Shown here: piece by piece, positions 2,670 through 53,561 of the stretch
Position numbering within the stretch: position 1 is the first letter of the stretch
Layout: every line of letters begins with the position of its first letter
NCBI GenBank assembly: GCA_003116875.1
Contig: BCKT01000004.1
Coordinates: 1,546,891 to 1,610,890, forward strand
Length of the DNA: 64,000 bases
Source: Takashimella koratensis
Lineage: Eukaryota; Basidiomycota; Tremellomycetes; Trichosporonales; Tetragoniomycetaceae
Reading direction: 5' to 3'
Notes under the pieces: model-generated
What the model saw: the letters and a program-made list of their open reading frames with translations, nothing else
Databases searched by the model: none
Told to the model about the DNA's origin: nothing
Program-made: the position numbers and the translations under genes

Positions 2670-2905
2670 CGCTGCAGAGCTCTGCGGAAGGGATGGAAGG
2701 GAGTTGTCCAAATCCATAGCCCCTCGGTGAGAGAAAAGGAGAGGGGGAGGAAAGATTCAAGGTGTTCATACATCCCATTTGCTCATCATGCCAAAAATGA
2801 GAAGATGTTCATTTTGTCTCTGTTTGGATGGCGTTTTTTCACACGAGTGCGGTGCTCTGCTACTTGCGACACAAAGTTGTTCTCACTTTCGGTGTCTGAG
2901 GTGGA

Positions 2906-2940
2906 GTGGAGTGACAAAAAGCCCGTTCATCCTTTCTCCC
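2906..2940 (+). repeat. Copied promoter block, copy 2 of 3
   Basis: GTGGAGTGACAAAAAGCCC is followed by GTTCATCCTTTCTCCC. It matches the blocks at 1535 and 4285 and lies about 160 bases before the ATG at 3071. Confidence 0.6.
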
Positions 2941-3070
2941 AAGCCTTCGGGTTTTCTCTGCTTTCTATGTGCTGAGACATGAAAGAGTAGACTCCACAGC
3001 GCACAAACATGTCTTACTCTTCAACCTTACAGTTGTCCACTCAACGCCCTTCTTTGCCCAATTCTCCATA

Positions 3071-3952
3071 ATGGCTGAATCCAACATGAACCTTTTCCGG
3101 CTGCAGCTGGAACACTCCGAGGTGGACTGGCACGACGGGTGTTGGCCAGACGCGCGCAACAAACCCCCACGTCCTGTCGAATCTCCCACCGTCCTTCCCG
3201 AGCTTGAACCAGATATTACGGGACGCGTGACTATAGACGATGCATTCCGACTCGTCAAATGGTCAGTTGGAACCATGGACCGCATGAATGTCAAATCTGG
3301 ATACTGTGAAGATAACTACCTCACCATGGCGCGCGGAATCATGATTGGCATCAATACCAACGAGCCGGAGTCGCCTCGGACTCAGGAGATCACCTCGACT
3401 TCCGACGGGAAAAGGTGGTTTAGCCCACTCAGAGAACTGGAAGCTGAGAAGCGAGAAATTGCGGACAAGCATTTTCAGCAAGGCAAGCTATTGCTCGACC
3501 AAGTGTTCAAGCCTCCAGTGACTGGGACCGCGACTTCACGGCCCTCGTCGCCAGACCACATGAGTGGGTCAGAAGATACGGCAATGGCGAAGAAATCCAC
3601 CGATCCCACAACGACAGGTCTTGCGGACACTTGGGCTTCGGACATCCGTATTGCGTATAAGATTCACGGCTTCTTCACCGGCGAAGACACCGAGTGAATG
3701 TGTGGACTGTTACTACGATTTACCTATGATCCGCTTTATGTTTTTGTCACCAATTCAAACTAATACAAGTGGATCCGAAGGGACGACTTGCAGTTTATCT
3801 TGGACCCCGATCTCCATGATCCCTCAGCATCTTCACTAGAAGATGCTTTCAATCCATTCATTGCCGAGGATGACGAGGTCACGAGCGACGAAGGTCTCAC
3901 TCAGGACCCCGAACAGAGTTTGTGGGAGCAGACGGGCTGGGCGGAGGGATAG
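3071..3952 (+). CDS. Unknown small protein, family I copy 2
   Basis: The start is ATG 3071 (MAESNMN). Exon 1 runs 3071-3693. The frame meets a TGA right after the GT donor at 3694, so an unspliced reading would stop there. Splicing 3694-3780 (87 bases, phase 2) adds an acidic last exon, 3781-3952, ending in TAG. That exon matches the last exon of the neighbour at 1642 in place, phase and pattern (DDLQFILDP against DHQLLLEAW), which supports the splice. The middle (AFRLVKWSVGTMDRMN, then FSPLRELEAEKREIADKHFQQGK) is predicted helical. I recognise no domain, signal peptide or membrane segment. The gene is a tandem duplicate of the one at 1642 with its promoter copied as well. The function is unknown. 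Confidence 0.7.
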
Positions 3953-35202: not shown

Positions 35203-35932
35203 TCACTCGCCCTTCGAGTCTAGAGTGGAAGTCGGGCCGGGAATCATCAACATCCTTGCGAGGCCGTTCAACTTTGTATACCCGTCTGTGACCTCCTCCA
35301 CACGAGTCTCAGTAGTGGGCTTGTTCAAGATCTGGCTTTCTCCCAAAGTAATGGACGATTTCGCATTCGATATGACAGACATTGTCATCGTTTGACTGAA
35401 ATCGTCGGTCTCTTCCTCTTTCTCGTCTTCTCCACGGGACTTGGGAAGGAGGCCATTGTCCTCTATCCCCAGTAGCGTTTGAAGAGACGAGCACCCGGCC
35501 TCTATGGAATAGATGACAGCCAAAGCTAGCCTGTAGGCTCAGTAAGTAGTCTACATGCAATAAAACTCACTCGTCTGCGGTGACACTACTTCCTCGGTGG
35601 CCCGCAAAAGCCTTGATGGGGGCAAGGTAAGTATCAAACAACTCGTTATGTATTTCGCTGGTAGCGAACGCGGGAAACACCTCTCCGAGGAGAGCTGTAG
35701 CGGTCACAGTGAGTGGAAGCAGATCCCAATCCAACACTGAGCCTTCCTTCAATGCCTTGAGAAACTCCACGTGTGTGCGCCATTGATTGAGGGCAGTCGA
35801 CTCCACCTTGCTTTGCTTTTCGAACTGTTCCGTAACAAAGTCCAACGTTTGCGTCCCAACCACTGCGGGAATGGTCGAAGCGCGCTCTTCGGAGACTTGC
35901 GCAGCGTCTTTGTTGGTTTCGACCATGTTCAT
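35203..35932 (-). CDS. Unknown small protein, family II copy A
   Basis: Exons 35932-35571 and 35530-35203 are joined by a 40-base phase-2 intron and give 229 residues (start MNMVETNKD; an internal Met two codons on is possible). It is a paralogue of the gene at 36604-37351: VSEERASTIPAVVGTQTLDF here against ISEVRTETIPEVVGKQTLSL there. After the intron LALAVIYSIEAGCSSLQTLL matches LAREVHLSLDEAALSLEMRL. Both end with a conserved tail (TDGYTKLNGLARMLMIPGP against VEAYARLKGATRSLIMFNSP). It is mostly helical, with no signal peptide, membrane span or known domain. Function unknown. Confidence 0.72.
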
Positions 35933-36390
35933 CTTGGTTGAATTGTATAAACGCTGAGAGGTTCAAATTTGTTTGTTCAAGGTTGTCGTGGTAAGGAGTG
36001 GATAAGATGGGAATGGGAAAACCGATCACTTACTCTATTTGTAGGAAAGAATACACAGCCTGTGGGTACCGGGCTCTCTCTCTCTCAGTCTGTGCCCACG
36101 CCCCATGAGTTGATCCGCCCCACTACCACTAGGCAGGTCTCAAAGGGGCGTTCGCTTGGCATGGTTTTACGGGTTTCAAGGAGATAAAAACGCTAATAAC
36201 CTTTGTCCTGATAGTGTTTCACTGTGGTGTACATGGACGGGTTTTACGCACCTCTCATGCCATGCGTCATGACGGGACCCCATTCGACATCAGTGAGAGA
36301 ACAAAGGGACTGTTTTGGAGGAGACAAGGCGCTACAGCTTCTCCAGCACTGTTTGACCCACTTCACAAGTTTCAATGTGGTTTCGCTATC

Positions 36391-36432
36391 TCTCGATGCA
36401 AAAAGGAGGAGAAAGAAAGGAAGGATTTATCG
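36391..36432 (-). repeat. Copied upstream block, family II copy A
   Basis: TCTCGATGCAAAAAGGAGGA and the following A/G-rich bases to TTTAT lie about 460 bases upstream of the ATG at 35932. The equivalent block at 37771-37810 lies about 420 bases upstream of copy B. Confidence 0.55.
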
Positions 36433-36603
36433 TCGCACATTGTCAACCCAGGCCTTTGACGAGTCTTAGTAATGCTGACAAGGGCTCGCAGAACAGATCA
36501 CAATGTCAGTCATAGAAAAAGATTCATTCCTAAAGATCTCGCTACTTGTCGCTCATTCTTAGCTCTCCGTAAAGTCAGGATTCGATCCTCGGTCATTAAA
36601 CCC

Positions 36604-37351
36604 CTAGAGAGGAGCAGCGGGCGAATTGAACATGATCAACGACCTTGTCGCTCCTTTCAGTCGCGCATAAGCCTCCACGGTCGACTCGGCACGAGACTTG
36701 CTATTAGATTGGATCAACGAGTCCATCGTGAAGCTTCGGTTTAGCCCGGACGATCTGGATGCCAGTGTTGTCACCGAACCTGCCAGAGGGTCATCTTCGA
36801 ATCCTTCTTCAAACAAGGCCCGAGTACGGAGACCTCTGTCATCTAGGCGATCTTCAGGAAGAAGATCCTCGCCCTGGACTGGCAAGCGCATTTCCAGGGA
36901 CAAAGCTGCTTCATCCAGTGACAGGTGCACCTCCCTCGCGAGTCTTTACCATCAGCACGCTGCGTATACCAGTTCGTACTCACGTGGAATCAGAGGCGGT
37001 ACGACCGCGGGATATCTGGAGGGCTTTGACGGGCTTAAGGTAAGCTTCTGTAAACGCCACATCCAGGCCCTCAGGAGTCCAGTAAATCGAAAAGGTAGTT
37101 TGCAGCAAAGTCTTCACGTTGCCTATCAATACTTCCCACTCCTGTTCCGTCCCTCCTACGATCTCATGCTCCTTCATCTGCTCCAGAGTATCCACGTATG
37201 CTCTCCACTCCCAAAGCTCGGCCGTCTCTGTTAGTCCTTGTCTTTTGAACTCTTCCTCCACCAGACTCAGCGTCTGTTTGCCAACGACCTCAGGGATCGT
37301 CTCTGTTCGCACTTCCGAAATTTGTACAGCTTGATCTCGGGCTTGACTCAT
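36604..37351 (-). CDS. Unknown small protein, family II copy B
   Basis: Exons 37351-36984 and 36943-36604 are joined by a 40-base phase-2 intron, the same length, place and phase as in copy A, and give 235 residues. The ATG at 37351 (MSQARDQ) is chosen because it aligns with copy A. The frame stays open upstream to 37456 and would add a hydrophobic stretch (VIPSLVAVLFLAIIVLF) that could anchor the protein in a membrane. No domain is recognised. The N-terminal half has a WEWRAYVDTLEQMKEHE helix matching NQWRTHVEFLKALKEGS of copy A. The function is unknown. Confidence 0.72.
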
Positions 37352-38465
37352 ATTGGCTTGTCTGTGTTTTTGGCTAAATTCGACCTTCTTTGAGAAAAGG
37401 ACAATAATAGCAAGGAAAAGAACGGCGACGAGGGAGGGTATGACTAGGCAAGGCATTCTGAAGGTCTCTGCCTACTCTCTCCGACTCCTACCGCTCGTTG
37501 GGACGGCAACATATCCGAAAGCCTTCGTTCGGCTTGTTTCGAGGAGCTCAAAATGCTGGTGGCACCTTTGTCCTCCTCTTCTGCCGCGGGCTCGCATGGC
37601 GAGGCAGCTCTCACTAGCTCCACCCTTGTCGCCCCAGGCAGCAAGTAGAAAGGAAGGTTGTGTGGAACAAAGGGTGTTTCCCCATCATCGTACACTGGGA
37701 GCAAGATTTCGGTTTCGAGCTATGCGACTGGTCTCCCTTTACGCTTTGCACACATTCTACTCCGCTTTCGTCTCTCGTTGCAAAAAGGAAGGAAAAAGAA
37801 CGGGTTTTATACGTCTAGTTTGACGGCAAGAGGATGATGCGAAGACAGGACGATATGTGACTTGGGAAGAGGCTAATCGGCGTACTTCTCCCTCAACGCT
37901 CGTCCCATCGTCAGTGAGGCTGAAGAATGGCAGTGGTGAAGCTAGACGAACGGAGAAGGGAATTCAAGACCACCTTCTCGACTGCGGTTCGAGCCGTCGT
38001 GTATTGAGCTGACAGCTGAATAAGCTGATCGAAAGAGAAACGAGATTGTCTTCCATATATACAAAACATTTCAGGATTTATATGATTGAAGGAATAGTCA
38101 TTCTGTCAACTGGCCAAGCTGGGAGATTGGTGAATCGTCTTCGTGGATCAGGTAAATGAGTATAATCGAACATGGTGGTCGTGTATATGTATCATAGCGC
38201 CCGTTACCTCGTTAGCTCGATAACGAACTACGCTAAGACATGAGACGAAGAGCGTATATGTATATACTGCACGACTCGTGAACAGATAGACGCCTCTTCG
38301 TCGAATGAATATCTTGTCATTCTTAGTATCTTAACGAGTACCGCAACCTATCAGAGGGAACCGCTATTCTACCGCTACCACAATATGTACAGTAGTATGA
38401 CAAACGGTCCTTTCAGCATCAGGCTGCGTGTCAACTAGACAAGGTCTTCCCACACCTGGTCCCGC
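37352..38465. promoter_or_regulatory. Family II copy B promoter and spacer
   Basis: This holds the copied upstream block at 37771-37810 and an AT-richer stretch at 38050-38420. I see no convincing gene. Short ORFs here do not match any of the island families. Confidence 0.35.
37771..37812 (-). repeat. Copied upstream block, family II copy B
   Basis: TCTCTCGTTGCAAAAAGGAA, then an A/G-rich stretch to TTTTAT, matches the block at 36391-36432. It is evidence that the promoter was duplicated with the gene. Confidence 0.55.
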
Positions 38466-39316
38466 TTACATTCCCCCTATCAGGGACAATGCCTCTTCAA
38501 TGCCAATCGGGTCAAAATTCGCAGTCTCGTCTGTTTCCATGAAGGGCCACCTCACTTCCTCTTGTGCATGCGCGTCTTCCTGATACAGGCTCGATGAAGT
38601 CGGTAGTGGAATGGCGCTCTGTCGAAGTGATGCACACTTGAGACCACTAGAGCAGGATACAGGAGCGACTGGCAGGAGGGCGGAAATGAAATGCAGCTCA
38701 CTATACATTTCGAAAATCTTTTGAAGATTCGACGGACTTTCTCCAGACAAGTCAGATCGGTCGGAAAGAGGTATTCCCCCTCGAATGTTGTCGTAAAAGG
38801 TCAATCCAGTTTGAAGAGCGGTAGCTACCCTATTCACAGTATCAGCTTGTTGTCGGTCAAACGACAATGTACTTACGCTTGTTGACTTCCGTTTCGAAGA
38901 AGCAAACGATCAAACGGGTGGTCGTAGACGTGACCAACTGTCGTTGCTAGGAGTGTGGTGTCTGTCCCGCCCGATGCACAAATCAAAGCTTTCAAGCGAA
39001 GCATTTCGGTTTGAAGTTGATTCGATTTGCCTTTATCAGTGCTATCTCTACCTTCGGACGAAGACCTGCGGTGTTGGAGAACGCTGTCGACAAGATTGCT
39101 ACCCTCTGTCCTACAGTGGTGACACAGCGTGTTGAAGGAGTTTTCGAGACGTAGTTTCGTCTCATGTGCGACCAATCCTTCCAATGTCCATACGTATGGA
39201 GTGGGTGTCTCTAGAACAAACTGGTCAATTGAAGGGGAGGAAGATTCCGAAGAGAGAGGAGGGTGGAGGGCGTTTTGAGAGAGGAACGTTGGGGTGAGTG
39301 GAATTTCAAGGCTCAT
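38466..39316 (-). CDS. Unknown small protein, family III copy 1
   Basis: Exons 39316-38877 and 38829-38466 are joined by a 47-base phase-2 intron and give 267 residues. The N-terminus (MSLEIPLTPTF) is Ser/Pro-rich. Then comes LEGLVAHETKLRLENSFNTL, EGSNLVDSVLQ and LICASGGTD ahead of the intron, and ATALQTGLTFYDN just after it. The genes at 39761 and 40544 repeat these marks (LEDQVVLETKKRLENSGLTL, GSDLVDIVLE, LSSGGSA, ESLQTALSFYQ). No known domain, signal peptide or membrane span is seen. The function is unknown. Confidence 0.7.
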
Positions 39317-39760
39317 CGTGGGCGAAGGGCTCAGAGAGAGGAGAGGGCGGCGGAAATTTGATTATTGGGGGAATGACGAAATATGAGCTGTCTCGCTTAT
39401 GTACAAATACGTGCAAGGGACTCATGGCTGGTGGGACAGAAATGTTCCCATGGGATGTGCATGCCAAGCTCCTGACTTTCACAACCTTTCAACATTGACC
39501 TTCCCTTTCATCTAACCTTTGACATGTGCGACCCTTTGAGCACTGCGGACCGATGAAGCGGAGTTGAAGCTGACCGTAAAGCGGAGAGAAGCGGAAAGTC
39601 CGTATACCCCAAACAAGTGCAGTGGTGATGGATGTGAGCAAGGGACGGGGTATGTGAATCTGCCTCGGTGCACTTTGTACACTCCAGCTTGTGTTCAGGC
39701 GGTTTCATTCCCATAAACGAAGGCCGTACTCGTATATTCCAGACAGAAGAAAACTACACA

Positions 39761-40480
39761 CTACTGGATAAGTAATAGTGCAGGAGTCAACTGAAAAAAG
39801 ATCCTCATAGCGGTTTCCATGCTGTCGCTGCCTTGGATGAGCTCCTTTAGCTGTTCATCCAGAACGACATTATCTATTGTCGCCATCAATTCGTCGCTGA
39901 TAGCCGACCGCCATTTCTGAGCTGACGAGCCGATGTTTGATTCTTTCACACATGTAGACTCACATAGGAAAGTCCCCGATGGAATTTTCAGGCTCGTCGC
40001 GGCTGTCCCGAGCTGACTGTAAAATGCCTTGATGGAATCGCTTTCAGATAACCCCTCCAAAGTGACTGATCTTATAGAAAGCCTCGGTTCCTTCTGGTAG
40101 AATGACAGGGCAGTCTGAAGACTCTCTGACACGCTAAGTGTCTTTAGCTTAGAGTTTGGAGTTTTGGGAGTACATTGCACTCACGTCTGGTGGTTGCTTC
40201 CGCTCTTGCACTTTGTGCGGAACGTGTGGAAGTAAAACAGTCCTACAGTTGCCGGCAAAGGTAGAGCGGAACCTCCTGAGGATAACATCATGTGGTACAG
40301 ACGTGTCATGTCATCGTTGAGAGGGGTTCCAGGTTGCTTGCTCTTCTCAAGGACGATATCAACGAGATCACTTCCCTGTTTTCTACAACAGCAGCACAAT
40401 GTGAGGCCAGAATTTTCTAGCCGTTTTTTGGTTTCGAGGACGACCTGATCTTCCAAGCTCCAGCGTTGGAGGGGGGTCAT
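39761..40480 (-). CDS. Unknown small protein, family III copy 2, 5' end unclear
   Basis: Exons 40480-40195 and 40133-39761 with a 61-base phase-2 intron are supported by alignment to copy 1. The acceptor TTAG before C-GTG-TCA is the one that restores the frame. The first exon contains WSLEDQVVLETKKRLENSG, a CCCC cluster and GSDLVDIVLEK; exon 2 begins VSESLQTALSFYQ. ATG 40480 gives 219 residues but a shorter N-terminus than copy 1. The same frame remains open upstream to a TGA at 40544-40546 that is also the stop of the next gene. So either the start is truly 40480 with a promoter inside the neighbour, or the two are one interrupted gene. Confidence 0.6.
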
Positions 40481-40543
40481 CTTCCGACAGATTTCGCTCG
40501 AGCTGTGGGGTGATCGACGAATGCAGGCTTTCGAGATTGTTCT

Positions 40544-41144
40544 TCAACCGCTCGTACGGTGCTGAATAACAGTGAGAGGCTCCATTTGCTCCAAATTGTT
40601 TTCATTGTCGTGACGAGGCGTACGTTGGGATGTGCCCATGCTGGTAGATCGGGAGTCAAGTTGTTCGCCAGTTGAATCGACGGCTGATTGCAGGACATCA
40701 GATATGCACCGGAGCTGCCTACAAGAGTCAGCGTGAAAATGTCATCCGCCCTGGATCTTACTCGTCAAGATCGCTTTGGTAAGTGCATAACTGCTCCACC
40801 AAGCACTGATAAGTCAAGGCGGTTTTATGCGCGGTGCTGTATGTCGGTTGACCTCCGGACCGTTCAAAAATGTCGTTCAGGCCAACTAGAGTCGATTGCG
40901 ATCTCGATTCGGACTGACTGGCCGCGGACTCTGCCTCGAGGTCGTGCAGCAAGGTGTCGATCAACGAAAGTCCTTTCGTCCTCTGATCAGTTGGGAGGAA
41001 GTTGTTTTCGTTTTCAATCCACCATTTACAGCTATGAAGCACAAGACGTGATAGAGTTTGTCTGCCTTCTGAGTTGGCTTGGGCGTTGGGGACTGATACG
41101 GGCTCAGTCGTGTTGTCCTCTGGACGGGGGTCGCTCTCGGTCAT
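40544..41144 (-). CDS. Unknown small protein, family III copy 3
   Basis: Exons 41144-40762 and 40718-40544 are joined by a 43-base phase-2 intron and give 185 residues. The ATG at 41144 (MTESDPRPED) is preferred; ATG 41171 would add nine. The middle aligns with copies 1 and 2: LSRLVLHSCKWWIENENNF, GLSLIDTLLHDLEAES, IFERSGGQPT, then after the intron QLRCISDVLQSAV. It is the most diverged of the three. It stops 64 bases before the ATG of copy 2, in the same frame. No known domain is seen. Confidence 0.62.
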
Positions 41145-41284
41145 GGTAGTTTTTGGACGAACGTATTGCAATGGGAGGAGGATGTTTGAATGTGGAGGAA
41201 CAGAGTATTCTCAACTAGTCATTTGTCACGACTCACAGTCAACCTGGACAAGTGAACACTAGCAAGAAGGACTCGATTTCAGCT

Positions 41285-41401
41285 TTAAGCGCCGCTTGAA
41301 AACCTTTGCCAGTCCTTGCACCACGCGTGAACGTGAGATCCGGCCGTTTGTGAGACTGCGATAAGGACAAAGGCGAGAGCAGTGGCGATGAGAAAGGTCA
41401 T
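41285..41401 (-). CDS. Possible 38-residue secreted peptide
   Basis: ATG 41401 to TAA 41285 encodes a short protein whose first 20 residues (MTFLIATALAFVLIAVSQTA) look like a signal peptide, followed by an 18-residue tail with one Cys and two Trp. It lies on the same strand, 140 bases upstream of the family III copy 3 start. A small ORF like this can arise by chance; it could also be a lost 5' exon. I rate it as weak. Confidence 0.25.
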   Translation of the reverse strand: MTFLIATALAFVLIAVSQTAGSHVHAWCKDWQRFSSGA

Positions 41402-41708
41402 CCTTTGAACTCTACCCCGTGCACTCGTCCAGTACGTGAAAGGATCCTAGCGGAGGCCAAAAAAGCTCCCTACCTTTCTCTCAGGAGTCTCGATACAGTA
41501 CACGAGCTATCCGAGCTCTTGACCAAACCGTGTTACGTACAGGTATTTGTCTGGCGCCGAGAGGAGGCCCGAGATTTATCTGAGGCAATCGTGACGGCGA
41601 TCAACCCGGCATGGAGAATAACAGCAGAAGTATGCATCGCTACTTGGCCCATCTCATCGATTAGATTCTCACGTCAAGGATTTAATTGCTTTTCAAGCCC
41701 CAGTCCGG

Positions 41709-42828
41709 CTAAAACAGAGGAAAATCTCCTTCCGCGCGTTCCAGGTCTATATCGTCGATCTGCTCTTTGCGATGATGATTTCTACCCCGAATCGTGTCAT
41801 GGTCGTCGTCGACAGGAACGACCAGCCCCTCAGGATGAGGTGGAAGGAAGAACTGGTCGGCAGGAGAAATTTGTATCATTGTATCTTCCAGGTCTTGATA
41901 CATCCCTTCCAGTAATATCATACCTTTGTCTCATTCAAAGATCGGAGTACCGGATTCCACGAGCTGCGTCAACTCAGGATAGGCAAAATCCTGGGCAATG
42001 AGCGTGCCGTCTGGACGCGTTCCGGTCGAGCGTCCCTCATTCTGGAGTAACTTATGAACGTGCTTAAACTGCCGCAACATCTCCTCATCACGCCAGCTGA
42101 GGAGGCGTTAATCGGAGCAGACACTCACATCACCTACCTTAGTTCCTTGTACCTTTCCCTCAGTACTACGCAGCCGACGCTTTGCCAGTGCAGGGTCGCA
42201 AGTGCCGTGTCACTTTCGGACGCGTAGCCTTTTGCACCACTGGCATTACTGAAAATTTGGTCTAAGGAGGTATGTCGCTGGCTCACTCCGGCGTCCTCAT
42301 CCCCAGCCTTGGAGGCGGAGTCGCCCATTTCCAAAGATCGCAGGCTGAATACGGACTGAGACATAGCAAGGTCATCAGCATCCACACCATTCCCTCCGCC
42401 ACCCGCAGATACAGGGGAAGTGGAAGTGGCATCGACCATTGTGTCTCCTGCCGAAGTAAGGACCGCTCTGCCGAGCCTTTCGATTCGTCGCTGGTGGGGT
42501 CCGGAATGACATTCTCCGAAGGTGAACGAAGAGACCGGTAGAGTCTAGATAGATGATGATGCGCCGCCAAAAAGGACTTTGGATCAATATCGGTTTGCAG
42601 ACGGCTTCTGAGATACTGCCAAGATTTGGAGATCACGACTTCCTGCATATTGATGGGAGCTAGATGATCCAAGTGGGATGTCTCAGAGCCACCCATTGAT
42701 GAGGGGACATACACAGAGCCAAACTCGCTTTCTGCTCCACCGAAGATATTCCTGGAGTCCGGGTAATCCTCCGGGAAGTGGTCCATCCCGCTGAGGTCCA
42801 TGTCTCGGCTTTGTAAGTTGAATGCCAT
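41709..42828 (-). pseudogene. Broken family IV copy (frameshift plus stop)
   Basis: Relative to the intact gene at 44125-45332, the N-terminus (DMDLSGMDHFPEDY, EVVISKSWQYLRSRLQTD) and the later part (VFSLRSLEMGDSASKAGDED, ALATLHWQSVGC) are both present but lie in different frames. The shift falls between about 42465 and 42439. The usual phase-2 intron (42137-42097, 41 bases) is intact. In the last exon a TGA at 41931-41933 replaces the Gly codon after PIFE; translation past it again matches (GMYQDLED, GLVVP) to the TAG at 41709. Two independent lesions make a pseudogene likely. An assembly error could explain one of them. Confidence 0.75.
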
Positions 42829-44124
42829 GGTGAAGTAAGTTTTTGGGTGTCCTTGTCGATGAGGAGACAGTGTGGTGGGCTATCTCTGTTTGATCGAAAA
42901 TAAATGGGTGTGAAACACTGGAAAAATACCTATTTTTGCGGTGGTGAGGGTATGTCCCAATTATATCCCCCAGACCAACTTGACTCATGTCGCGATGACG
43001 AAGGCCAATGCGAAGAACAAAGGTGCGACAAGCATGAAACAAGTTTGCTCAGGCTTACACAAACGGTGTAAAGAGAGCTAGGGGTCGAGTGAAATAGATT
43101 ATTTGGGGCAAACCCCTCCATCCTCCGTCGGGGGATGGCTGCCCGACCATTCACAGTATCATTCAACCCCCTCCTGGCCCCTCCCCCCGGCTGTTCCTTT
43201 GGGGATTGTCTGACAAATGTGAGGTGTTTCAAATCCTGGTGAGTCAAGCTACATGCTCGTCTCAGTATTGTTTTCACTTGAAGGGGGAAATCCAGTGGTG
43301 TCACTGACTGAAATAGACTAAGCTCGCAGGCTCTTCCTGGCTGGAAGCTCCCACTCCTCATGGTGGCCACCTGCATCGCATATTTAGACTGCAGCCCACC
43401 ACAGCTGCCGACAACGGTGGCGGTCAAAATGAGTGGAGGAGTGGTTGAAAGATGTGGTAAAGGAGGGTTCCCCCCTCCACACCGATTGTCGGTTCAAAAC
43501 CAGTCATGTGCTGCCGAATACAAAGGGTCTCCTTCGTTGGCGTAAGAGGTATAGGAAAACTAAGCCGGCAATAATCTCAAAGCAAAGGGGGCTCTTCAAG
43601 ATCCTACCTAATGGGACTAGCTGGGAAAGTGAGGCGTTGATCCTTTGAAAATTTCCTCACAACATGCTGTTTTCCGCTTGCCGAAAAATTGTACAGTAGA
43701 CGAGCTTTGGCCTCTGGTGAACTGCGCTGTTCAAATTCCCCAAGCGCCTGGATAGGCTCCGGCGAGCCAGTCCTGAAGCGGTGAAAGCTCAGTGAACTGC
43801 AAGAGGGCGAAGTTCGGGCGATCCTTTCAGCTGAGTAACTAAATTATTTCGCCTTTCGCCGATCACAATCACACCATTTGGCTCCTTACTTGCGCCCATT
43901 TGCGTTTTTCGCATATTGACATTAGGCTGATGACTATAACAGAGCTCACAATCAGCCTGAGCATGTTTTCCATACAATCGAAATGCACGGAGAAAACTGA
44001 GTGACCAAGACCAATGCAGAGGGAACTCCATTCATCGGATGAAACACCCACTGTCATTCGAGAGTACTAAATTCAGGAGAAAGCAGGATTCTGGCGCATT
44101 ACTGAAGGTGGGATAACCGTTAAC
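42829..44124. other. 1.3-kb spacer inside the island
   Basis: This is the upstream region of the broken copy and the 3' flank of the next. I found no frame matching any island family and no other gene. Confidence 0.3.
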
Positions 44125-45332
44125 TCAAAACAAAGAAGGAAGTCCGCCTCCTTCGTCCAGCGCAAGATCACCATCGTTATTTTCCGGCTTCCCTTCCTCG
44201 ATACCCAGGACAGTGCGCTCCTCCTCAGGATCAAAGGGAACAACCAGTCCATGAGCGGGTTGGGGCTTTGAGAACAAAGGTGCGACAAATGTCGGCAGCA
44301 CTGTGTCCTCCAGGTCTTGATAAAGCTGTTCTAGACGTTTCATGCCCTCTACCCCTTCAAAAATAGGAATTCCGGTCTCGACTTGGCTCGTCAACTCAGG
44401 GTAGTCAAAGTCTTGAGTCATGTTGCTTCCGTCAGGTCGCGTTCGATTGGCCCTTTTCTCTTGTTCGAGTGACTCATGAACGTCCCTGAATTGATTCAAA
44501 GTCGTCCAATCTCGGCCGCTAAGAACGTCAGGTACAACGTTAGAGAGCATACCTACCTTGGCTCGTGATAATCTTGCAACGACATACAGCCCACATTTTG
44601 CCAATGCAGAGTTGCCCGAGCTATGTCAGCCTTAGATGTGTATGCCACTGGACCACTGGCAGTACTGAAAACAGCATCCAATGCCGCCATTCGCTGGTGA
44701 CCAGCGATATCCTCATCCCCCGATTTAGAGGCAGAGTCACCAACTTGGAGTGATCTCAAGCTGACTTGTGACATCGAGAGGGAAAGATTGTCAGGATCCA
44801 CCTCGTCGTCGGTGCTCATCGCAGAAGGAGAGGAAGTAAAGCTTGTGTCGGCTAGCCTATCACCTGTAGAAGTATTGGACAAAATCCCCGAGGGTGTAAA
44901 GCTATTGGTCGGAATTGAGCCGGCTCTAGTTAGACTCTCGACGAGTCCTTTCCCTTTGGAGCCCAATGATCGACTTGCTGAACCTTCAGATACGTTGTCG
45001 TACGGATCATTGTCTTGAGGAAGACGTTCCGGAGTAGGGACTTTCCGCTGGTAGAGAGCCCAAAGGTGGTGGTGTCCAGTCGCGAGGGAGTTCTCCCCAA
45101 ATGAAAGCGCCAGCTGCGTTTTGAGATACTCCCAAGCTTTGGAAAAAACCAGCGCCTTGATGTTGGTCGGCCTGACCTCATCCAAGTAAAAGATTTCAGA
45201 GCATTCCATAGATGAGGGAACTCTTGCAGACCCGAACTCACTCTCACCCTCAAAGCAATGCTGGAGCCCCTGGGGTACTACTCGGAAGCGCTCCATGCCT
45301 TGGAGATCCTGGTCTTGAGAGCTGGAGGTCAT
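44125..45332 (-). CDS. Unknown protein, family IV copy G
   Basis: Exons 45332-44557 and 44518-44125 are joined by a 38-base phase-2 intron and give 389 residues. The ATG at 45332 (MTSSSQDQDLQG) aligns with the start of the broken paralogue at 42828. Modules in order: SEFGSARVPSSM, ALVFSKAWEYLKTQ, a long Ser/Thr-rich linker, MSQVSLRSLQVGDSASKSGD, ARATLHWQNVGC. After the intron come GRDWTTLNQFRDVHESLEQ, then PIFEGVEGMKRLEQLYQDLE and an acidic tail. The SKA..Y helix, the RD right after the intron and the F-EG-x3-L-x2-LY-x-DLE helix recur throughout family IV. No signal peptide or known domain is seen. Confidence 0.74.
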
Positions 45333-46239
45333 GGTGCAATTGTGTTTGATAACGTTGGTTGTGGTGTTGTTGAAGAGACATTGTGTTTCGGCTGTCACTG
45401 TTTATCTACGTGCACTTGCAGGCTGCAATGTGGAGGATTAGACAAAAGAGGGCAATACTGGAAACACGGCTGAGTTTCCCACCCATCCCACTCTACTAAA
45501 CCTCACGGTGGGGAAGACATATGGGGGACTTCCATGTACAGTGGCGTGGGGATACGATGTCTGACCAAACTCGCCGTCGCCGGCAACCCCACACACTGCA
45601 AGATCAAAGGACGAGATCGGAGAAGGGATTGTGCGCAATGCCCTTCTTTTGTATAGCGGGTCGGAGATACTTCGTTCTTCCTTTGGGGGTTCTCTGTCGC
45701 CGGACAACCGGTGATGTTGAAAATGTGGATTTGAGAATTTCCTTTCAACGCGACGTTGCGAAGGCAGCTAAAGCGCCCAAAAATCCCCAGTGATCTGTAC
45801 TGTAATCGGCAACGTAAATCAGAAAGGGAGTGGGGCGTCTGCGGAAGAGATGGAGAACTAGGAGATCTGTTTTACAGTGGGCGAAGACCACCAGACTGTC
45901 ATTAAGAGAAAATGATTTTCCGATGTGCATCCAAGCCCAGAGGCCTCCATATGTTTGAGTGAATACGAGCAGCTGGAGCTGCTTTGATGACACTCGAAGG
46001 TTGTATAGCCCAGTCAATACAGGTCAGGTAGGAGGCGATCTCTCGCTGGCTGGGGAGATGTGTCTCGATTATCATGACTCGTCGGCTTGTTCGTTTAGTG
46101 ATGAACTCTTTAACCATAGCATCCTCCTACTTAAACGTTATAGCTCGATATCGTGACGGCAACTAGCAGACGTGAGCCCAACACTACCACATCTCTCTGG
46201 CAGTTGAGACGCTTAGGCTAGATCCTAACGGCAGTGCAA
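45333..46239. other. Spacer inside the island
   Basis: About 900 bases hold the promoter of copy G and the 3' flank of copy H. I see no gene. Confidence 0.3.
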
Positions 46240-47143
46240 TCACTGCTGATTGGCTACACGGTATTCGATGTCTAAGTACATCTTGTTCAGCGTATTGAAT
46301 CCCTGACTACCCTCCAAGTCTTTCCCCCCGTTTGCAACTCTTGTCGAGAGCTCATTCAAGTTGAGATGGTTGTTCGCGAGCGGCAACTGCCATCCGTCAT
46401 AGATCTCGTTCAACCAGATAAACTGCTCGATAAGCTCAGTGTCTCGTCGGCTGGAATAGAAGTGGGTTAGCAATTTTGACAAACGCCATCGTCACTTACC
46501 GAGAAGGGTCGACATCAGGATTAGTCTTGTCGTCACTTGTGGCCAGAACGGCACTTTCAACGTTATAGTAGTGAAAGTCGTCAAGCACACGAGAATGGTT
46601 TGTGGCGGTCACCCCGCTTTCAAAAGTCTTTCTCAACTCCTGGAGTCGCTGGTCAGGCGTGCGAGGCTGTTGTCGAGTGATAGAGCGCTCGTTGTGGGCT
46701 TCCCCCAACTCAATGGGTTGGAGACTATCGAGTGATGGGTCTTGAGCCTCACCCTGCTCTGAAAGCACCTGCGAAGCAGCCAGAGACTCTGTCTCGTGCT
46801 GCAGTTGCAGCTCTTCCCATCGAGCCCAGGATGGATGGAGACGAGAGAGTTGATGTGCCGCATTCCAAAGAGTGGTCAAATCTTTATCGACTTCCCATTT
46901 CTCCTGTTTGTAGGCAAGAGCCTTCGATATGATCAGCTCTTTCACAGTCTCGACGGGTGCGTTTTGAAGGCGATGGACAGATGATCCCATCATCGACATA
47001 GCGAGAGAACCAGATCCGAAAGAGCTAATCGTATTGGTTCTGTTGTTTGGGCTGAATAACGTGAAATCGTCTTCAGGTTCAAAGTTATGTCTGCCATTCC
47101 TCTCGGAGTGGTTAATGTTAAAAGGTGAGTTCTGGTCTGACAT
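46240..47143 (-). CDS. Unknown protein, family IV copy H
   Basis: Exons 47143-46500 and 46450-46240 are joined by a 49-base phase-2 intron and give 284 residues. The start is MSDQNSPFN. Order of marks: FEPEDDFTLFSPNNRTNTIS, SMMGSSVHRL, KELIISKALAYKQEKWEVD, AAHQLSRLHPSWARWEE, DFHYYNVESAVLATSDD. After the intron come RRRDTELIEQFIWLNEIYDG and LEGSQGFNTLNKMYLDIEYR. The gene at 48593-49513 is its closest paralogue. The protein is helical and soluble with no known domain; function unknown. Confidence 0.75.
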
Positions 47144-47676
47144 TGCCAAGGTTCTGATGGGTGTCTTCAATTGTCAGATAGTGTTAGTGAGAGGGGAACG
47201 GCGAGCTCGCGTCTACTTATATATCCTTCTTGTCAATGAGGGCCAAGCATGCGGAGGCCTTCTCTCGCTCTCGCCTGTTGAGCACAACCCGGAGCCTAAA
47301 AGAGAAGGAAAAAGGATGCTGTTGAAAAGTCCCCAGCTGCTGCCGAGCCGAGCATAATGGAGCTAGGCAGCTTCAAACATTTATTCAAAGTCAACAGTCG
47401 GACTAAATCAGACCCCGAGCGGTTGGAAAGCAAGGCAACTGAAAGGAGGGGGGTACATCCCAGCAGATTGCTCGCGGGAACAGCGAATAGACGCCGACCA
47501 GCTACAAAGGATCTTGTTGAGCTTTGAGAGCCGACTATCATTAGGAAAGGCGTTGGCTCTTTCCCCCGTCGAACGGCAGCTGGCTTTGCAACACCGTTTC
47601 CGTTCGGGTCATGGATAAACGATGTTTGGATGAAAGTGCACATACTCGGTGGCAAAATCGGCTCAACCAATGTCCG
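47144..47676. other. Spacer inside the island
   Basis: This holds the promoter of copy H and the 3' flank of the truncated copy. An ORF of 124 codons at 47296-47670 on the minus strand matches no family member and is not called. Confidence 0.3.
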
Positions 47677-48270
47677 CTATGATCGTACACTTCTGCATCC
47701 ATTTGGTGCTGCTGACCGCTCGCTTTCAACGCACGTTCTTGTTCTCTTTGCCTCAACACCACCTAAGTAGACCGCCTTGCCTGCCCCTCTCGGGCTGATC
47801 TCCGGCTTGTCTCTCTCAACCGGTGAACAAGTGGATTGCTCGTCCTCACTCTCTCCGCTAGCTTCGATGGTGTGGTTGGCCGTTTTGAACGCAAGGAGCA
47901 AGTCAGAGTACAGCTTTCTCAGCGCATCGAGACCTTCAAGGCACTCGAAGGCGAGGTCCCCTTTCGACGCTTGCGATGTGAAATTGTTGAGTCCTGACAC
48001 ACTGGAATTTCTCGAGCAAGTCGGAATATCCTCACTGTAGTAGTACAGATCGGTGAACGCTTTGAGAAACTGTTTGTCGCGATGTCTGAGCAACCGTCAG
48101 TCAGGTTCACAGCAACAAAGCCCATCAAGCACGTACTGGAGGAATGGATTGTTGGCGATCATGTGAAGTTTCAACGGGCTGGATGTCCATCTCTCGAAGT
48201 TACATACAACCAACAAACATCTCTCTGCTGGGCCTCGACCGCTTGCGCGTCGCCGAGATATCCTCGTCAT
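47677..48270 (-). CDS. N-terminally truncated family IV copy L, possibly a pseudogene
   Basis: A model with exons 48270-48137 and 48085-47677 keeps the family's short phase-2 intron (51 bases) and the downstream RD motif (HRDKQFLKAFTDLYYYS). It also keeps the LECLEGLDALRKLYSDLLLA-type helix. The first exon is only about 44 codons (starts MTRISRR) and ends IANNPFLQ, like ANDTEFLE of the gene at 52445. The N-terminal SKA..Y and HP modules of intact members are absent upstream. The result would be 180 residues. It may be a remnant of a full-length gene whose 5' part was lost, or a short functional derivative. Confidence 0.45.
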
Positions 48271-48592
48271 TCATTGGGGCCCAGCGCTGGCTAGTGTCTC
48301 TATCGTTCCTCTAGCGGTCTTGCCGTTGGGCCACCAGTTCCGGCCTGCGCCACCCAGCAAGGACCGTTCTCGGCATGTCAGGTTCTTCAGCAACAGCTCA
48401 TGTACGAACTGAAAACGACATGTCTAATAATCATACTGCATGCTGCACCGAGCGATTCCGACTTCGGAATTAGTCCTTCTCATTTTCAGATTCGAATCTC
48501 ATCCGTCCGCATATTCTGTCTCTCCCATCACCCAAGTCCTATACATCTCTTGCTAATGTGCCCAAGCGTAGGATAAGAGGATGAAGTCTCAG

Positions 48593-49513
48593 CTACTGAT
48601 GGGATATCAAACGGTATTCCACGTCTGAATAAAGGACCCTAAGCTTTTCCACGCCTTGAGTACCTTGAAAAACAGGTCGTCCAGTGGCCACCAAAGTTGA
48701 TAAGGCATTCAAATCCACCAAGGTAGTCGCAGGTCTCCTGAAATGCCAGTCGTCGAACAGGGCGTTGATCCACACAAACTGTTCCACGATTTCTTGGTCT
48801 CGATGACTGAAAGAGATAGATTGTCACCAACCGTCACGAAAGGTCACTTACCGAGTAGGGTCAGCTTGATCGTTCGCTGTGTCATCGCTGGTACCGAGCA
48901 CGGCGCTCTCAACGTTGAAGTAATGAAAGTCCGTAAGTGTGCGATGAATTTCTTCTTCCAGTGGAGCGCACTCAAAGTTCGTTCGCAAAGCTTTAAGGCG
49001 CTGATCAGCCGTACGCGGTTGAGGCGTTCTAATAGTGCGCTCGTTGCTAGACTCGCCTACTACAATAGGCTGCAAGTTGCTCAAAGACGCCTCTACGGCT
49101 TGATCCGGCTCTGACAGAACACTTGAGTCTGCTTCAAACGCTGCTTCATGTTGACGTGATTGCTCTTCCCATTCGGGCCACGATGGATGGAGCCGTGAAA
49201 GCTGATGACCTGCGTTTTGAAACGCGGTAGAATCCCCATCCGCTGCAAATCTGGCTCGCTTATAATCGAGAGCTTTCGATATGACCATGCCTTTCACAGT
49301 TACGACTGGCGCGGTGAGCAGATTGGTCATCGAGGAGCCCATTATAGACTGAGCTAAGGAGGAACCGGTAGAGCTCATAGTATTCACCCTGTTACCCGGT
49401 CCGAACAACGTGAAGTCACCACCATCTTCAGGTTGAAAATGGCGTCGATCGTTGACATTGTCATTATTCCCTTGGGAACCGTTATTTCCGAGAACAGAGC
49501 TATGGTTCGACAT
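48593..49513 (-). CDS. Unknown protein, family IV copy I
   Basis: Exons 49513-48852 and 48806-48593 are joined by a 45-base phase-2 intron and give 291 residues, starting MSNHSSVLG. It is closest to the gene at 46240: FQPEDGGDFTLFGPGNRVNT, SIMGSSMTNL, GMVISKALDYKRARFAADG, AGHQLSRLHPSWPEWEEQS, DFHYFNVESAVLGTSDD. After the intron come RHRDQEIVEQFVWINALFDD and FQGTQGVEKLRVLYSDVEYR. A run of 17 G lies about 105 bases upstream of the ATG. No known domain is seen. Confidence 0.75.
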
Positions 49514-49616
49514 TGCAAGAGCTCTCCTCGATGCTATTAGATACCAGTAAATGGTGGGAAATGAGGACTCTCCACCTTGAGCCACATACAGTACTTATAG
49601 ATGCTACTGTCGGGGC

Positions 49617-49633
49617 GGGGGGGGGGGGGGGGG
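49617..49633. repeat. Run of 17 G
   Basis: An uninterrupted G tract on the plus strand (C on the coding strand of the gene at 48593-49513), about 105 bases upstream of its ATG. The length may be imprecise because such runs are error-prone in sequencing. Confidence 0.8.
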
Positions 49634-50532
49634 TCAGGAAATGCTATGCCAGGAGAGAGACGAGAGAATCTCGTCTTGTCACTCCGGAGGAAAGGAAAGT
49701 AGAAGGGAAGGTGAAAGCCGCCTCTAAGAGTCGTAGCAGTCCGACTCGCCGAGCAGCCGAACATTTGCACAAAGCAAGAGCACGGAAAGGAAGGTATGAC
49801 ATTTGAATGTGAGGTGGAAACCCCAAGGTCACTGCCTTCCCATAATCGCGGTGAGCAGGGAGCATCACAAAGGATCGCAGTGGGTGGGAGTGAGGACAGG
49901 ATTGAGAGAGGGAGCGATTTTATCACACGTCTCAAACATCGCACACTCGCCTGTAAGCTCTCTGCTAGAAAATGATCGACAAAAGGCGAGAAGGGATGTC
50001 AGGATACAGCATGTCTCGGGCAGTGTGAGGAGAAGTCCCGCTCCCGCTCCCGTACGGAAAGGCTGTGATGGGTATCGCTGGTGGGTCCCTTTGGTAGACC
50101 GTAAATGTAGCTACGATGCAAGTATTGTCGGTTGCAGAATATAAAATTCGATGGGGAGTACCAAGGCTATCACTGGGCCGTATATATACGTCTACAGCCT
50201 CGCCTCAGGTACTCCTATCTCTTGTCGAATGTGGCAGGTCTCAGTCCTTCTTTGGTGGCGTCCACCGTAAAGGTACATAGTTTACGGCCGAGTAGGCCGG
50301 TGTCCGTGACAAAGGCCCTGTGTACAGCGTGGTACATGGAGCGATAAGCTACATAAATTACCCCTAGCTACCCCGAGCAGCATATATGAGGAAGTCAGTA
50401 GACGTCGTCGTCGCATGGGTCCGTAGAGCTTCAGAAACCTAACAAGGGGCGTACTCGCTCAAGGCTTTGGTGTATAAAAGCTTCTCGTAAGATGGTCATG
50501 TCCAATTCCCTATCTCTGCGGTTCGTATTCTG
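49634..50532. other. Spacer inside the island
   Basis: About 900 bases hold the upstream region of copy I and the 3' flank of copy J. I see no gene. Confidence 0.3.
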
Positions 50533-51676
50533 TCAGTGCTTGTTCTTGTCCGCATTTCCTCTCCACCACCCAAACCAGCTGCTTTGCGTCCCCATTTCTT
50601 GCCGCCCTGATTTGTCGATAGCAGTCGCCGAAGGGAGTTGCGCACCCTCGCTTGCTCTGGAAGGTTCGTTGAACGAAAGTCGGGCATTGAGGTCGGAATA
50701 TAGCTCTTTCAGGAGACGTTCGTTCCCCTTGAAGGTAAATTCCCCGCACGACGCTTGTGCAGCAAGATCGTCTAGGTCTCCGAAACGAGAAGTCCCGTAC
50801 TTGGTGGAGTCCTTCAGCTCACATTGGTACAAAATTGCAAACTGTGAGAGGAGTTCCGCGTCGCACCTCCTGTAATATCGTTAGCGGTTTCTCGATTGTC
50901 AACCCCGCATCGCACCGCATACCTGAGAAATTCGGCGCCGGTAAGGCTGTCATGATTGAACTGAGTGCCTTTGACTTGGTCACCGACATAGGGGTTCCAA
51001 ATCACATGTTGTACGCAGAGGGTGTGGAACTCCGAAAGCTCCTTGTCGATATCACTGGCGTCGTCCGGTAGCTCAAACTGACATGCCAACTTGCGAAGAA
51101 GTCTCTCGAGGTCGGTCGGGAAGAGACGTGCGTGGAAGGCACCAGGTTCCTCCCCACAACGCACACGTGGGAGGTTCTGGGTCCATTTCGAGGGGTCTGG
51201 TAGGGATATGTCAGCTTTATGTCATGATGAGAGCATCGGTACATACCTCGCTGCGGATGGAGGATGGAGAGGAGTTGAGATACCCGGTCAAGCTGGCTGG
51301 TTCTGGGACGCTTGGAACGCAAGTACGAGAATGCTTTGGAGATGACGATCTCACAAACAGTGTTCGCGGGGAGGGTCAAGAGCTGTCTGAGAGAGGCGTA
51401 GCCGGTCGCGGGAGCGATAGAACAGCCAGAATCGGAATCTTGAGGGTCCGTGGCAAGAACGCTGACAGCGGTAGATGCTTCATTGGACGTGTGGTTGTCG
51501 AAGACATCAGAATTCGGGGCAGCGATGTTGAGGGCGTTGGTCGCACTGCCTGCGCTTTCGGCAGTGGTGTTGGTGATGACGGATTTCAACCACTGCTCAA
51601 AGTCATCAGTCATGGTATCGTTCGTCAGAGCTGTGCCAATGAAATATAAGTGGTGGTCGTCCGATGGATCGCTCAT
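50533..51676 (-). CDS. Unknown protein, family IV copy J (three exons)
   Basis: Exons 51676-51247, 51196-50923 and 50869-50533 give 346 residues. The first intron (50 bases, phase 1) is unique to this copy. The second (53 bases, phase 2) is the family intron. The start MSDPSDDHH is followed by DDFEQWLKSVITNTTAESA, ATGYASLRQLLTLPANTVCE, IVISKAFSYLRSKRPRTSQL, VSQLLSILHPQR. Exon 2 ends LTGAEFLR and exon 3 opens RRCDAELLSQFAILY, then FKGNERLLKELYSDLNARL. The paralogue at 52445 is closest. The C-terminus is WFGWWRGNADKNKH. No known domain or signal peptide is seen. Confidence 0.72.
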
Positions 51677-52444
51677 GATGCGTGAGATGAAGCCAAGTAT
51701 CGAAGTGTCGAAGAACGAGGGATGAGGAAATGGGCTACGTTTGGTGGTTTGCAGTTAGCCTTCATATACATTCGCCAGGGGAAGAGGGGAAGAGAGGAGG
51801 AGGGAAGGAGGGGAGGAGGGTAAGCGAGGGGAGCAAACGGTGTCTCCGCTCGTCTGTCTTGCTAGAGAGAGATTTTTGAACAAAGGATGAGACTGTGACT
51901 TGGGCAGAGAGGCAGGCAGAAGTCTGACGGCTCGCTTTGCTTGCCTTGAACTCTTTCAGAGCAACGATCGACAGAAAATCTGCAGCCCAAGTCTCGGCCG
52001 ATCAAAGGTGGGCTTGCCCTCTCACACCCTTACTTTACTGCATGTTGCTTAGAGCGTTTTGCATCCCGGAAAGCAGCTTGGCAGTGGCATTGAAAGGAGA
52101 TGCAGTAGAAAGGGGGAGAGGAGCGACTGAGTGCAAGCGTTCGAAGCCGTAGAGCTGAGAAAACGCGAGAAACGGGCGGGCTGGTGGGTGGCAGCGTGGG
52201 CTATGCTCAAGGTAAGCAGGAATTGTCTACCGGTCGAGATGGGTCTGCAACTGTCAACGCTTCCCCTAATTCTCCACTGGTTAGCTATAAAGCTTCAGTC
52301 CACTAATCCTGCAGAACCTATCACCCGATTGCATCGCCTCATCCTCGACTTTCGGGGTATACATATACTTGCCATCTCCATCCTCAACAGCCTGAACCAA
52401 ACCACGTACAACATCCATTCCCTCGAGCCTCGCAGCTACTGCCT
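51677..52444. other. Spacer inside the island
   Basis: This holds the promoter of copy J, with a G/A-rich run at 51781-51835, and the 3' flank of copy K. No gene is supported. Confidence 0.3.
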
Positions 52445-53561
52445 CTATTCGACGACTGCCCCTGTGCCCTGTGGAATGGCTTCCGTGCCTTCGGCATTCG
52501 ATTCGGTGGTGTTGAGGGAAAGATATTTCTTGAGGCTTGAGTACAAACCTTTCAGCCTGTTGAGACCTTCCTCGCCCTGAAAAGTGAGTTGATTCGTGAA
52601 TGTTTTGACAGCTTCGGCCTGAGAGGTTTCAAAGCAAGAAGCAGTCGCCTCGCCCGAGTGTTTCAGAAAGGGATATACATCGACAGATTCTAAGGCCAGT
52701 TGACTGTCGCGGATCCTAAGGGGTGTCAGCAGTATCTTTGAGGATAATCACAAGGATCACGTACTCGAGAAATTCTGTGTCGTTGGCGAGAGTGTTATGG
52801 TCGAACTGAACGACGAGGGTGTTGGCATTGGTTGAGACGTCCAAGAAAGCATATTGCACACACGAAATGTAAAAATTGTCAAGAGCATCAGGCGTGCTCG
52901 AGTCGGGCGATTTGAAGCTCTTTCTCAAGTGAGTGAAAAGCCCATGGAGAGTGTAGGAACAAATTCCGGTCGGGATCGTGAAGTCGCCGTCCACTTGCAC
53001 AGAAGGGAGGTCACGGAGTTTCCCAGATGACTCTGACTCAAACGGGTCTTCGAGGGTGTGGTTGACCTTCCCCGCTGTGAGAGAGCCGATGCCAATTTTC
53101 TCGGCGAGTGACTGGGCCAAGTTGCTCCGCAAAGGGTGGATGAGGGAGAGGAGCTCAGCGACGCGCTGGAGATCGGTGTGATCTTGTGAAACCTTGGACT
53201 TGATGTAAGAAAACGCTTCGAGGATGACAAGCTTGGGCACGGAATCGGCTTCGTCGGTGAGAAGGCTTTCGAAAGAGGTGTAAGGTGACGCGGTTGGATC
53301 AGGGGACATCTTCTCCGAAGCTGTCTTGTCCGAGGAAGAGCGGTGGGAAGCAGCCCAGTTCGAAATCCGCAGGTTGAAAGAGTCGGCAATGGCGGTAAGG
53401 AGATTGTCCGCATTCTCTGCATTTTCGGCCGTGTTCGCAGCCTGGATGGACGACAGCCAATATCTAAAGTGATCCATGCGGCCTGAGGCTGCATTTTTGT
53501 CAGGCTTCTTTCGGTCGTTGTATCCTGACCCAGTGCTGTTGTCGTCTTGCGGCTGGCTCAT
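52445..53561 (-). CDS. Unknown protein, family IV copy K
   Basis: Exons 53561-52765 and 52715-52445 are joined by a 49-base phase-2 intron and give 355 residues. ATG 53561 (MSQPQDDNS) aligns with copy J; the frame is open further upstream but that part is Leu/Cys/Pro-rich and probably leader. Marks: DHFRYWLSSIQAANTAENAE, SFESLLTDEADSVPKLVILE, AFSYIKSK, VAELLSLIHPLR, ALDNFYISCVQYAFLD, LANDTEFLE. After the intron come IRDSQLALESVDVYPF and FQGEEGLNRLKGLYSSLKKY. It lacks the extra phase-1 intron of copy J. The function is unknown. Confidence 0.74.

What the first reader, a model, noticed from the sequence alone, without database searches (positions are those of the whole stretch)
35203..53561. 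Island of tandem unknown genes sharing one phase-2 intron
Twelve gene models in a row, all minus strand and none with a known domain, form three tandem paralogue sets. In every one, including the broken and truncated copies, the last intron is very short (about 38-61 bases), in phase 2, and lies ahead of a short last exon. The two intact genes at 1642-3952 have the same layout with longer introns (137 and 87 bases). Sharing the phase this often by chance is unlikely, so the sets may be branches of one fast-evolving superfamily. This is the best candidate here for a lineage-specific undescribed system.
Basis: partly seen in the sequence, partly recalled or inferred. Interest (0 to 1): 0.85.

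Follow-up and report, generated by a model that had tools for sequence, protein, structure and literature searches.

The report
Tandem array of orphan fungal genes
A yeast-like fungus carries a row of twelve fast-changing genes of unknown function, seven of them clearly one family, for which the searches made found no relatives outside this stretch of the genome; whether all twelve share one origin is not proven.

Summary
The twelve minus-strand gene models (35203-53561) reach no Pfam cut-off, and in 12 of 12 the last intron is in phase 2, 38-53 bases long. The two + strand genes at 1642-3951 share the phase, as does a third relative 37 kb left of the window. At least the g7/g8 pair shows selection on protein: it differs at 0.29/0.30/0.63 of codon positions 1/2/3. 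Seven models (g5-g10, g8b) are one family by sequence; g1/g2, g3/g4a/g4b and u1/u2/u3 form three more sets. Eight protein queries of the host genome found members only at C4:1.509-1.600 Mb. Two protein-collection searches with set A found none, while a flanking Nup192 gene found 49. The phase argument is weaker than stated: paralogues inherit introns, so only three or four events are independent, and a common phase then arises by chance in about 12% or 4% of cases. Support for one superfamily is suggestive for sets A-B (first-helix motif, p about 0.006) and otherwise inconclusive. Best reading: a single-locus birth-and-death array of helical orphan proteins in a tremellomycete; function unproven.

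The parts
35203..35932 (-). g1, set B; two exons, intron 35570-35531 (40 bases, phase 2)
   Evidence: paralogue of g2, E about 1e-16
36604..37456 (-). g2, set B; start at 37351 or 37456 (the longer form has a hydrophobic N-terminus), intron 36983-36944 (40 bases, phase 2, AAG acceptor)
38466..39316 (-). g3, set C; intron 38876-38830 (47 bases, phase 2)
   Evidence: g3-g4b E 1e-12, g3-g4a E 3.5e-4
39761..40480 (-). g4b, set C; possible start ATG at 40480, intron 40184-40134 (51 bases, phase 2)
40544..41144 (-). g4a, set C (weakest membership); short last exon, intron 40761-40719 (43 bases, phase 2)
41709..42828 (-). g5, set A, broken copy (frame shift in exon 1, stop in last exon); intron 42137-42097 (41 bases, phase 2 in the local frames)
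   Evidence: pieces kept apart
44125..45332 (-). g6, set A; intron 44556-44519 (38 bases, phase 2)
46240..47143 (-). g7, set A; intron 46499-46451 (49 bases, phase 2)
47677..48136 (-). g8b, set A, fragment: last exon plus intron 48136-48086 (51 bases, phase 2 by the last exon's frame); exon 1 mostly lost
48161..48388 (-). old copy of a dispersed repeat next to the lost part of g8b
48593..49513 (-). g8, set A; intron 48851-48807 (45 bases, phase 2)
   Evidence: structure model
50533..51676 (-). g9, set A; introns 51246-51197 (50 bases, phase 1) and 50922-50870 (53 bases, phase 2)
52445..53561 (-). g10, set A; intron 52764-52716 (49 bases, phase 2; a 61-base alternative keeps the frame)
1642..2669 (+). 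u1, set D; intron 2340-2476 (137 bases, phase 2)
3071..3951 (+). u2, set D; intron 3694-3780 (87 bases, phase 2, AAG acceptor)
   Evidence: read; u1-u2 E about 4e-4 to 6e-4

Best explanation
A single-locus, birth-and-death array of lineage-specific protein-coding genes in a tremellomycete fungus. Tandem duplication made the copies; they diverged fast, some decayed, and dispersed repeats inserted among them. Shown: gene structures, selection on protein in the closest pair, one family of seven models, two smaller island sets, members found in only one stretch of one contig. Inferred from low-confidence models and hydropathy: the proteins are mostly helical and lack membrane segments (except a possible longer form of g2), with a disordered N-terminus. 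With no known domain found, I infer that they act by binding partners through helical faces rather than by catalysis. Most likely but unproven role: recognition or conflict (self/non-self recognition, defence against a parasite, or a selfish element), because such roles are known to favour tandem, fast-changing arrays with dead copies.
For: Phase-2 last intron in 12 of 12 models. Codon-position differences g7/g8 0.29, 0.30, 0.63, dN 0.38, dS undefined. Set A linked by phmmer and by 300-shuffle pairwise tests. Eight whole-genome protein queries hit only C4:1.509-1.600 Mb, apart from two single matches at E 1.07 and 0.449. No relatives in two searches of the protein collection with set A, while the flanking Nup192 gene gave 49, best Cryptotrichosporon argae at 73% identity. 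Set A helix-1 motif: g2 and g1 rank next after the six set A exons among 471 ORFs, at 11.0 and 10.6 against 10.4 for the next, and 0 of 313 Nup decoy pieces reach 10.6. GC 0.478-0.512 over 36-50 kb against 0.517-0.618 in all other 2-kb blocks of the window. Maximum hydropathy 1.54 over 19 residues in 13 proteins.
Against: No significant profile-profile link between sets. hmmsearch of set A against the seven B, C and D proteins: p 0.02 to 0.73 over three aligners, and no match at all in four of 21 cases. The helix-1 motif fails for sets C and D, and A-B shows no likeness after the intron (p 0.83-0.85). Codon-position contrast is weaker in the other four pairs. Models are low confidence, including the last helix before the intron in g8. 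No expression, population or synteny data. The protein-collection search needs shared exact words and would miss distant relatives; sets B, C and D were not searched there.
Confidence: 0.55

Rival explanations
1. Three or four unrelated orphan families that lie side by side; the common intron phase is coincidence plus inheritance within each set.
For: No significant inter-set profile match in 6 of 6 pairs. With Fusarium core-gene phase ratios (215:172:147 of 534 introns, PMC5677156, passages), three sets share some phase by chance in about 12% of cases and four sets in about 4% (my arithmetic). Sets C and D do not match set A's first-helix motif.
Against: Set A helix-1 motif picks g1 and g2 first outside set A. 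C-D post-intron likeness p 0.01 with one window, 0.05 with the other. Flanking Nup192 has 0 of 10 introns in phase 2 by best score.
Confidence: 0.38
2. A killer meiotic driver family in the manner of the fission yeast wtf genes: multi-exon, clustered, many dead copies, near transposon remnants, with a poison and an antidote from alternative starts.
For: Tandem array with dead copies and a neighbouring dispersed repeat; g2 has an upstream start that would add a hydrophobic segment (KD 3.08 over 19 residues).
Against: Only 2 of 13 models checked (g2, u1) have an upstream in-frame ATG. Transcripts and crosses unknown.
Confidence: 0.08
3. Gene-model artefact: open frames in noncoding sequence.
For: No relatives found outside the locus and GC3 of nine models (0.48-0.62) mostly below that of four flanking stretches (0.61-0.72).
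Against: Codon-position bias of g7/g8 differences; paralogues keep frame on both sides of the intron; GT-AG borders with usual donor sequences.
Confidence: 0.03

Closest known systems
Lineage-specific gene clusters of Neurospora (PMC10684091, abstract and outline seen)
   Same: Clusters of lineage-restricted genes whose proteins have few or no domains
   Different: There most are near telomeres and cluster with HET-domain genes; this island lies about 360 kb from the nearer contig end, and none of the eight flanking ORFs scanned matched a HET domain (most of those ORFs are partial genes)
wtf meiotic driver genes of fission yeasts (PMC9562144, passages seen)
   Same: Multi-copy, intron-bearing, pseudogenes among them, a transposon LTR beside copies
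   Different: wtf genes make an antidote from a start in exon 1 and a poison from a start in exon 2; nothing here shows two products, members were found at one locus only, and most models have one intron

Membership tests
Any Pfam family | Score at or above the curated cut-off | tested here: not met
   0 of 14 models reach a cut-off: 10, g4b, g8b, u2 and four pieces of g5
One island superfamily (sets A, B, C) | Significant sequence or profile similarity between sets | tested here: inconclusive
   hhalign not significant; helix-1 motif A-B p about 0.006 by 2000 shuffles and next rank among ORFs, but 22 motif tests were made (21 across sets) and g1 and g2 are paralogues
One island superfamily (sets A, B, C) | Common fold | tested here: inconclusive
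   Only set A (g8 with intron read through) and set B exon 1 modelled, pTM 0.33 and 0.45; set C not modelled
One island superfamily (sets A, B, C) | Same phase of the last intron | tested here: met
   Phase 2 in 12 of 12
One island superfamily (sets A, B, C) | Same intron position in a shared alignment | tested here: inconclusive
   No reliable alignment between sets; anchored tests mixed
wtf-like meiotic driver | Poison and antidote from two starts of one gene | tested here: inconclusive
   Upstream in-frame ATG in 2 of 13 models; transcripts unknown
wtf-like meiotic driver | Biased transmission in crosses | not testable with these tools
   Needs crosses
Known fold in the PDB | Structural match | tested here: inconclusive

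The most novel reading that the evidence does not exclude
All four sets (A, B, C and the u genes) are branches of one undescribed helical superfamily confined to this lineage, kept in one chromosomal stretch by tandem turnover, and working as a recognition or poison-antidote system; the common phase-2 intron would be the relic of the founding gene.
Probability: 0.13. Interest if true: 0.75.

Novelty: new member of a known kind. Interest (0 to 1): 0.42.

Why it matters
It shows fungal gene families between birth and loss at one locus, with intact and dead copies side by side. If the sets have one origin, the shared intron would be a marker that outlasts sequence similarity, a useful way to join orphan genes. 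If a conflict role were shown, it would be a new system in basidiomycete yeasts.

Tried and rejected
Pairwise tests with 300 shuffles (78 pairs, 13 proteins): best inter-set pairs g4a-g8b p 0.012, g10-u2 0.031, g6-g2 0.038, as expected among so many pairs. hhalign between sets: best A-B, E 0.12, on helix 1. Intron-anchored scoring in strict register: A-B and A-C below the mean of shifted anchors; A-D, B-C, B-D and C-D above it, ranks 22 of 118, 8 of 119, 21 of 118 and 49 of 118. With slack of two residues only C-D and B-D came near or below 0.05. Set A HMM against the rest with three aligners: g8b found, others not. PDB sequence search with the set A profile: one match, E 0.9. PHROGs: 1 of 5 members matched one unnamed family at E 0.0087, taken as chance. 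Viral-contig scan with g8 exon 1: 8 pattern matches, none confirmed. Foldseek and VIA-align found no convincing fold for the set A model; the set B model was not searched.

Upstream words: in 12 upstream stretches the commonest words, variants of CATCCTTTC, were in 9, 7 and 5 (6-, 7- and 8-mers) against maxima of 7, 5 and 4 in 30 single-base shuffles. TCATCCTTT, chosen after seeing this, has 5 matches in the window (chance mean 0.79, 0 of 100 shuffles reach 5), 4 of them upstream of u1, u2, g9 and g10 on the gene strand.

Papers: four library searches were run; none of the listings names this array, but the family has no name to search by, so this is no proof of absence. The chance figures for phase (12%, 4%) are my arithmetic. 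CTRAY-like branch sites before the acceptors are my reading of the sequence, not a tool result. That conflict roles favour fast-changing tandem arrays is general knowledge.
Full report
Setting. The window lies at C4:1546891-1610890 of a 25.1 Mb, 24-contig genome. A flanking gene, Nup192 (matching stretches from 18995 to 25836), gave 49 proteins, best Cryptotrichosporon argae at 73% identity over residues 1-500 of its largest ORF, then Vanrija albida at 65%; the named ones are tremellomycetes. So the host is probably a tremellomycete yeast near Cryptotrichosporon. Other flanks: a histidine phosphatase, a mitochondrial carrier and a short-chain dehydrogenase (3 of 8 flanking ORFs scanned had a Pfam match at E 0.001).

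Observation. I rebuilt the models from the sequence. The twelve are g1, g2, g3, g4b, g4a, g5, g6, g7, g8b, g8, g9, g10 in order from 35203 to 53561, all on the minus strand. Every last intron is in phase 2, 38-53 bases; g5 only in its local frames (one search printed phase 1 from the first ATG; searches give the local phase) and g8b by its last exon. u1 (1642-2669) and u2 (3071-3951) on the + strand have phase-2 introns of 137 and 87 bases. A third u relative, u3, found 37 kb left of the window (L020), has a 107-base intron in the same phase; it carries an inner stop and a recent insertion of a dispersed repeat. As a local yardstick, 10 introns of Nup192 measure 53-169 bases, five in phase 0, five in phase 1, none in phase 2 by best score. 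That is one gene, and one of its calls had a close phase-2 runner-up.

Are they genes? g7 and g8 (53% identity over 273 codons) differ at 0.29, 0.30 and 0.63 of first, second and third codon positions, the mark of selection on protein. The other four pairs are more diverged (dN 0.64-0.90) with weaker contrast: g9/g10 0.53, 0.39, 0.54; g1/g2 0.51, 0.38, 0.61; g3/g4b 0.48, 0.45, 0.75; g6/g8 0.59, 0.49, 0.69. dS is undefined in three of five pairs and 1.26 and 2.29 in the other two.

How many families? phmmer against 3259 ORFs of a 133.8 kb region and shuffle tests on 78 pairs give set A (g5-g10, g8b), set B (g1, g2), set C (g3, g4b and, at E 3.5e-4, g4a) and set D (u1, u2, u3). Within set A some pairs are not significant alone (g6-g9 p 0.30); g8 joins them. 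Eight queries (g10, g8, g3, g2, u1, g6, g9, u2) against the whole genome found members nowhere else, apart from two single matches at E 1.07 and 0.449. These are six-frame searches of scored candidates and could miss very diverged copies. The protein collection gave no relative of set A: 7998 candidates scored with the alignment at E 0.01, 47 with g8 residues 30-150 at E 10. These searches depend on exact five-residue words, so they exclude close relatives only. Sets B, C and D were not searched there.

One superfamily? Paralogues inherit their introns, so the island offers three independent cases and the u genes a fourth. With the phase ratios of Fusarium core genes (215:172:147; PMC5677156, passages) any common phase arises by chance in about 12% (three sets) or 4% (four) of cases. 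Profile comparison found nothing significant in six of six set pairs. A position-specific matrix from the first conserved helix of set A finds g1 and g2 at one homologous place (p 0.0065 and 0.006 by 2000 shuffles); among 471 ORFs they rank directly after the six set A exons, though the next ORF is close (10.4), and none of 313 Nup decoy pieces reaches 10.6. One search made 22 motif tests, 21 of them across sets, and the two hits are paralogues, so this is suggestive only. Against it, A and B are not alike after the intron (p 0.83-0.85), and the same matrix fails on sets C and D. The last-exon motif of set A reaches g4b at p 0.024 and, at the matching place but not significantly, g3 (p 0.19). 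The stretch after the intron is alike in C and D (p 0.01 or 0.05) and B and D (0.045 or 0.11), depending on window; the other four pairs are not.

Structure. The set A model (g8, 11-row alignment with exon pieces, intron read through) has mean pLDDT 61.3 and pTM 0.33; helices at 55-67, 73-92, 95-108, 112-132, 169-180, 187-206, 225-254, 268-276, 284-303, of which 187-206 is under pLDDT 50. Set B exon 1 (two sequences) has pLDDT 60.8 and pTM 0.45, with elements at 8-72, 79-96, 104-121, 123-126 and 128-151. Both are all-helical; the shared first-helix motif falls in a helix in both (73-92 in g8, within 8-72 in set B). That is all the models bear out; a common fold is neither shown nor excluded. 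No PDB match to the set A model is convincing.

Surroundings. The island is lower in GC (0.478-0.512 over 36-50 kb) than every other 2-kb block (0.517-0.618). A dispersed repeat of about 290 bases has 25 matches, some of them pieces of one copy, in the genome; an old copy lies beside the lost end of g8b, and a young one, about 94% like another copy, interrupts the L020 gene.

Mechanism. Shown: selection on protein in the closest pair, one family of seven, members found at one locus, decay. Inferred: helical proteins that bind partners; a recognition or conflict role is the most likely use for such an array but has no direct support. Comparison: lineage-specific gene clusters in Neurospora (PMC10684091, abstract and outline) and wtf drivers (PMC9562144, passages) share the multi-copy, lineage-restricted or decaying character; the defining features of wtf genes could not be settled here.

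Verdict. Observation confirmed, interpretation partly supported; a respectable but not exceptional orphan array.

Noticed in passing
48161-48388 and L020 1230-1505: A dispersed repeat of about 290 bases, 25 matches in the genome (lower bound, pieces counted apart); an old copy beside g8b, a young copy inside a broken u-type gene.
   Followed up: partly
1555, 2927, 51882, 53750: TCATCCTTT upstream of u1, u2, g9 and g10 on the gene strand; 5 matches in the window against 0.79 expected, the word chosen after a k-mer count. May hint at shared regulation of sets A and D.
   Followed up: partly
37351-37456: In-frame upstream ATG of g2 would add a strongly hydrophobic N-terminus (KD 3.08), absent in g1.
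   Followed up: partly
36389-36414 and 37771-37796: 85% identical 26-base repeat upstream of g1 and g2, perhaps a trace of promoter duplication.
   Followed up: no
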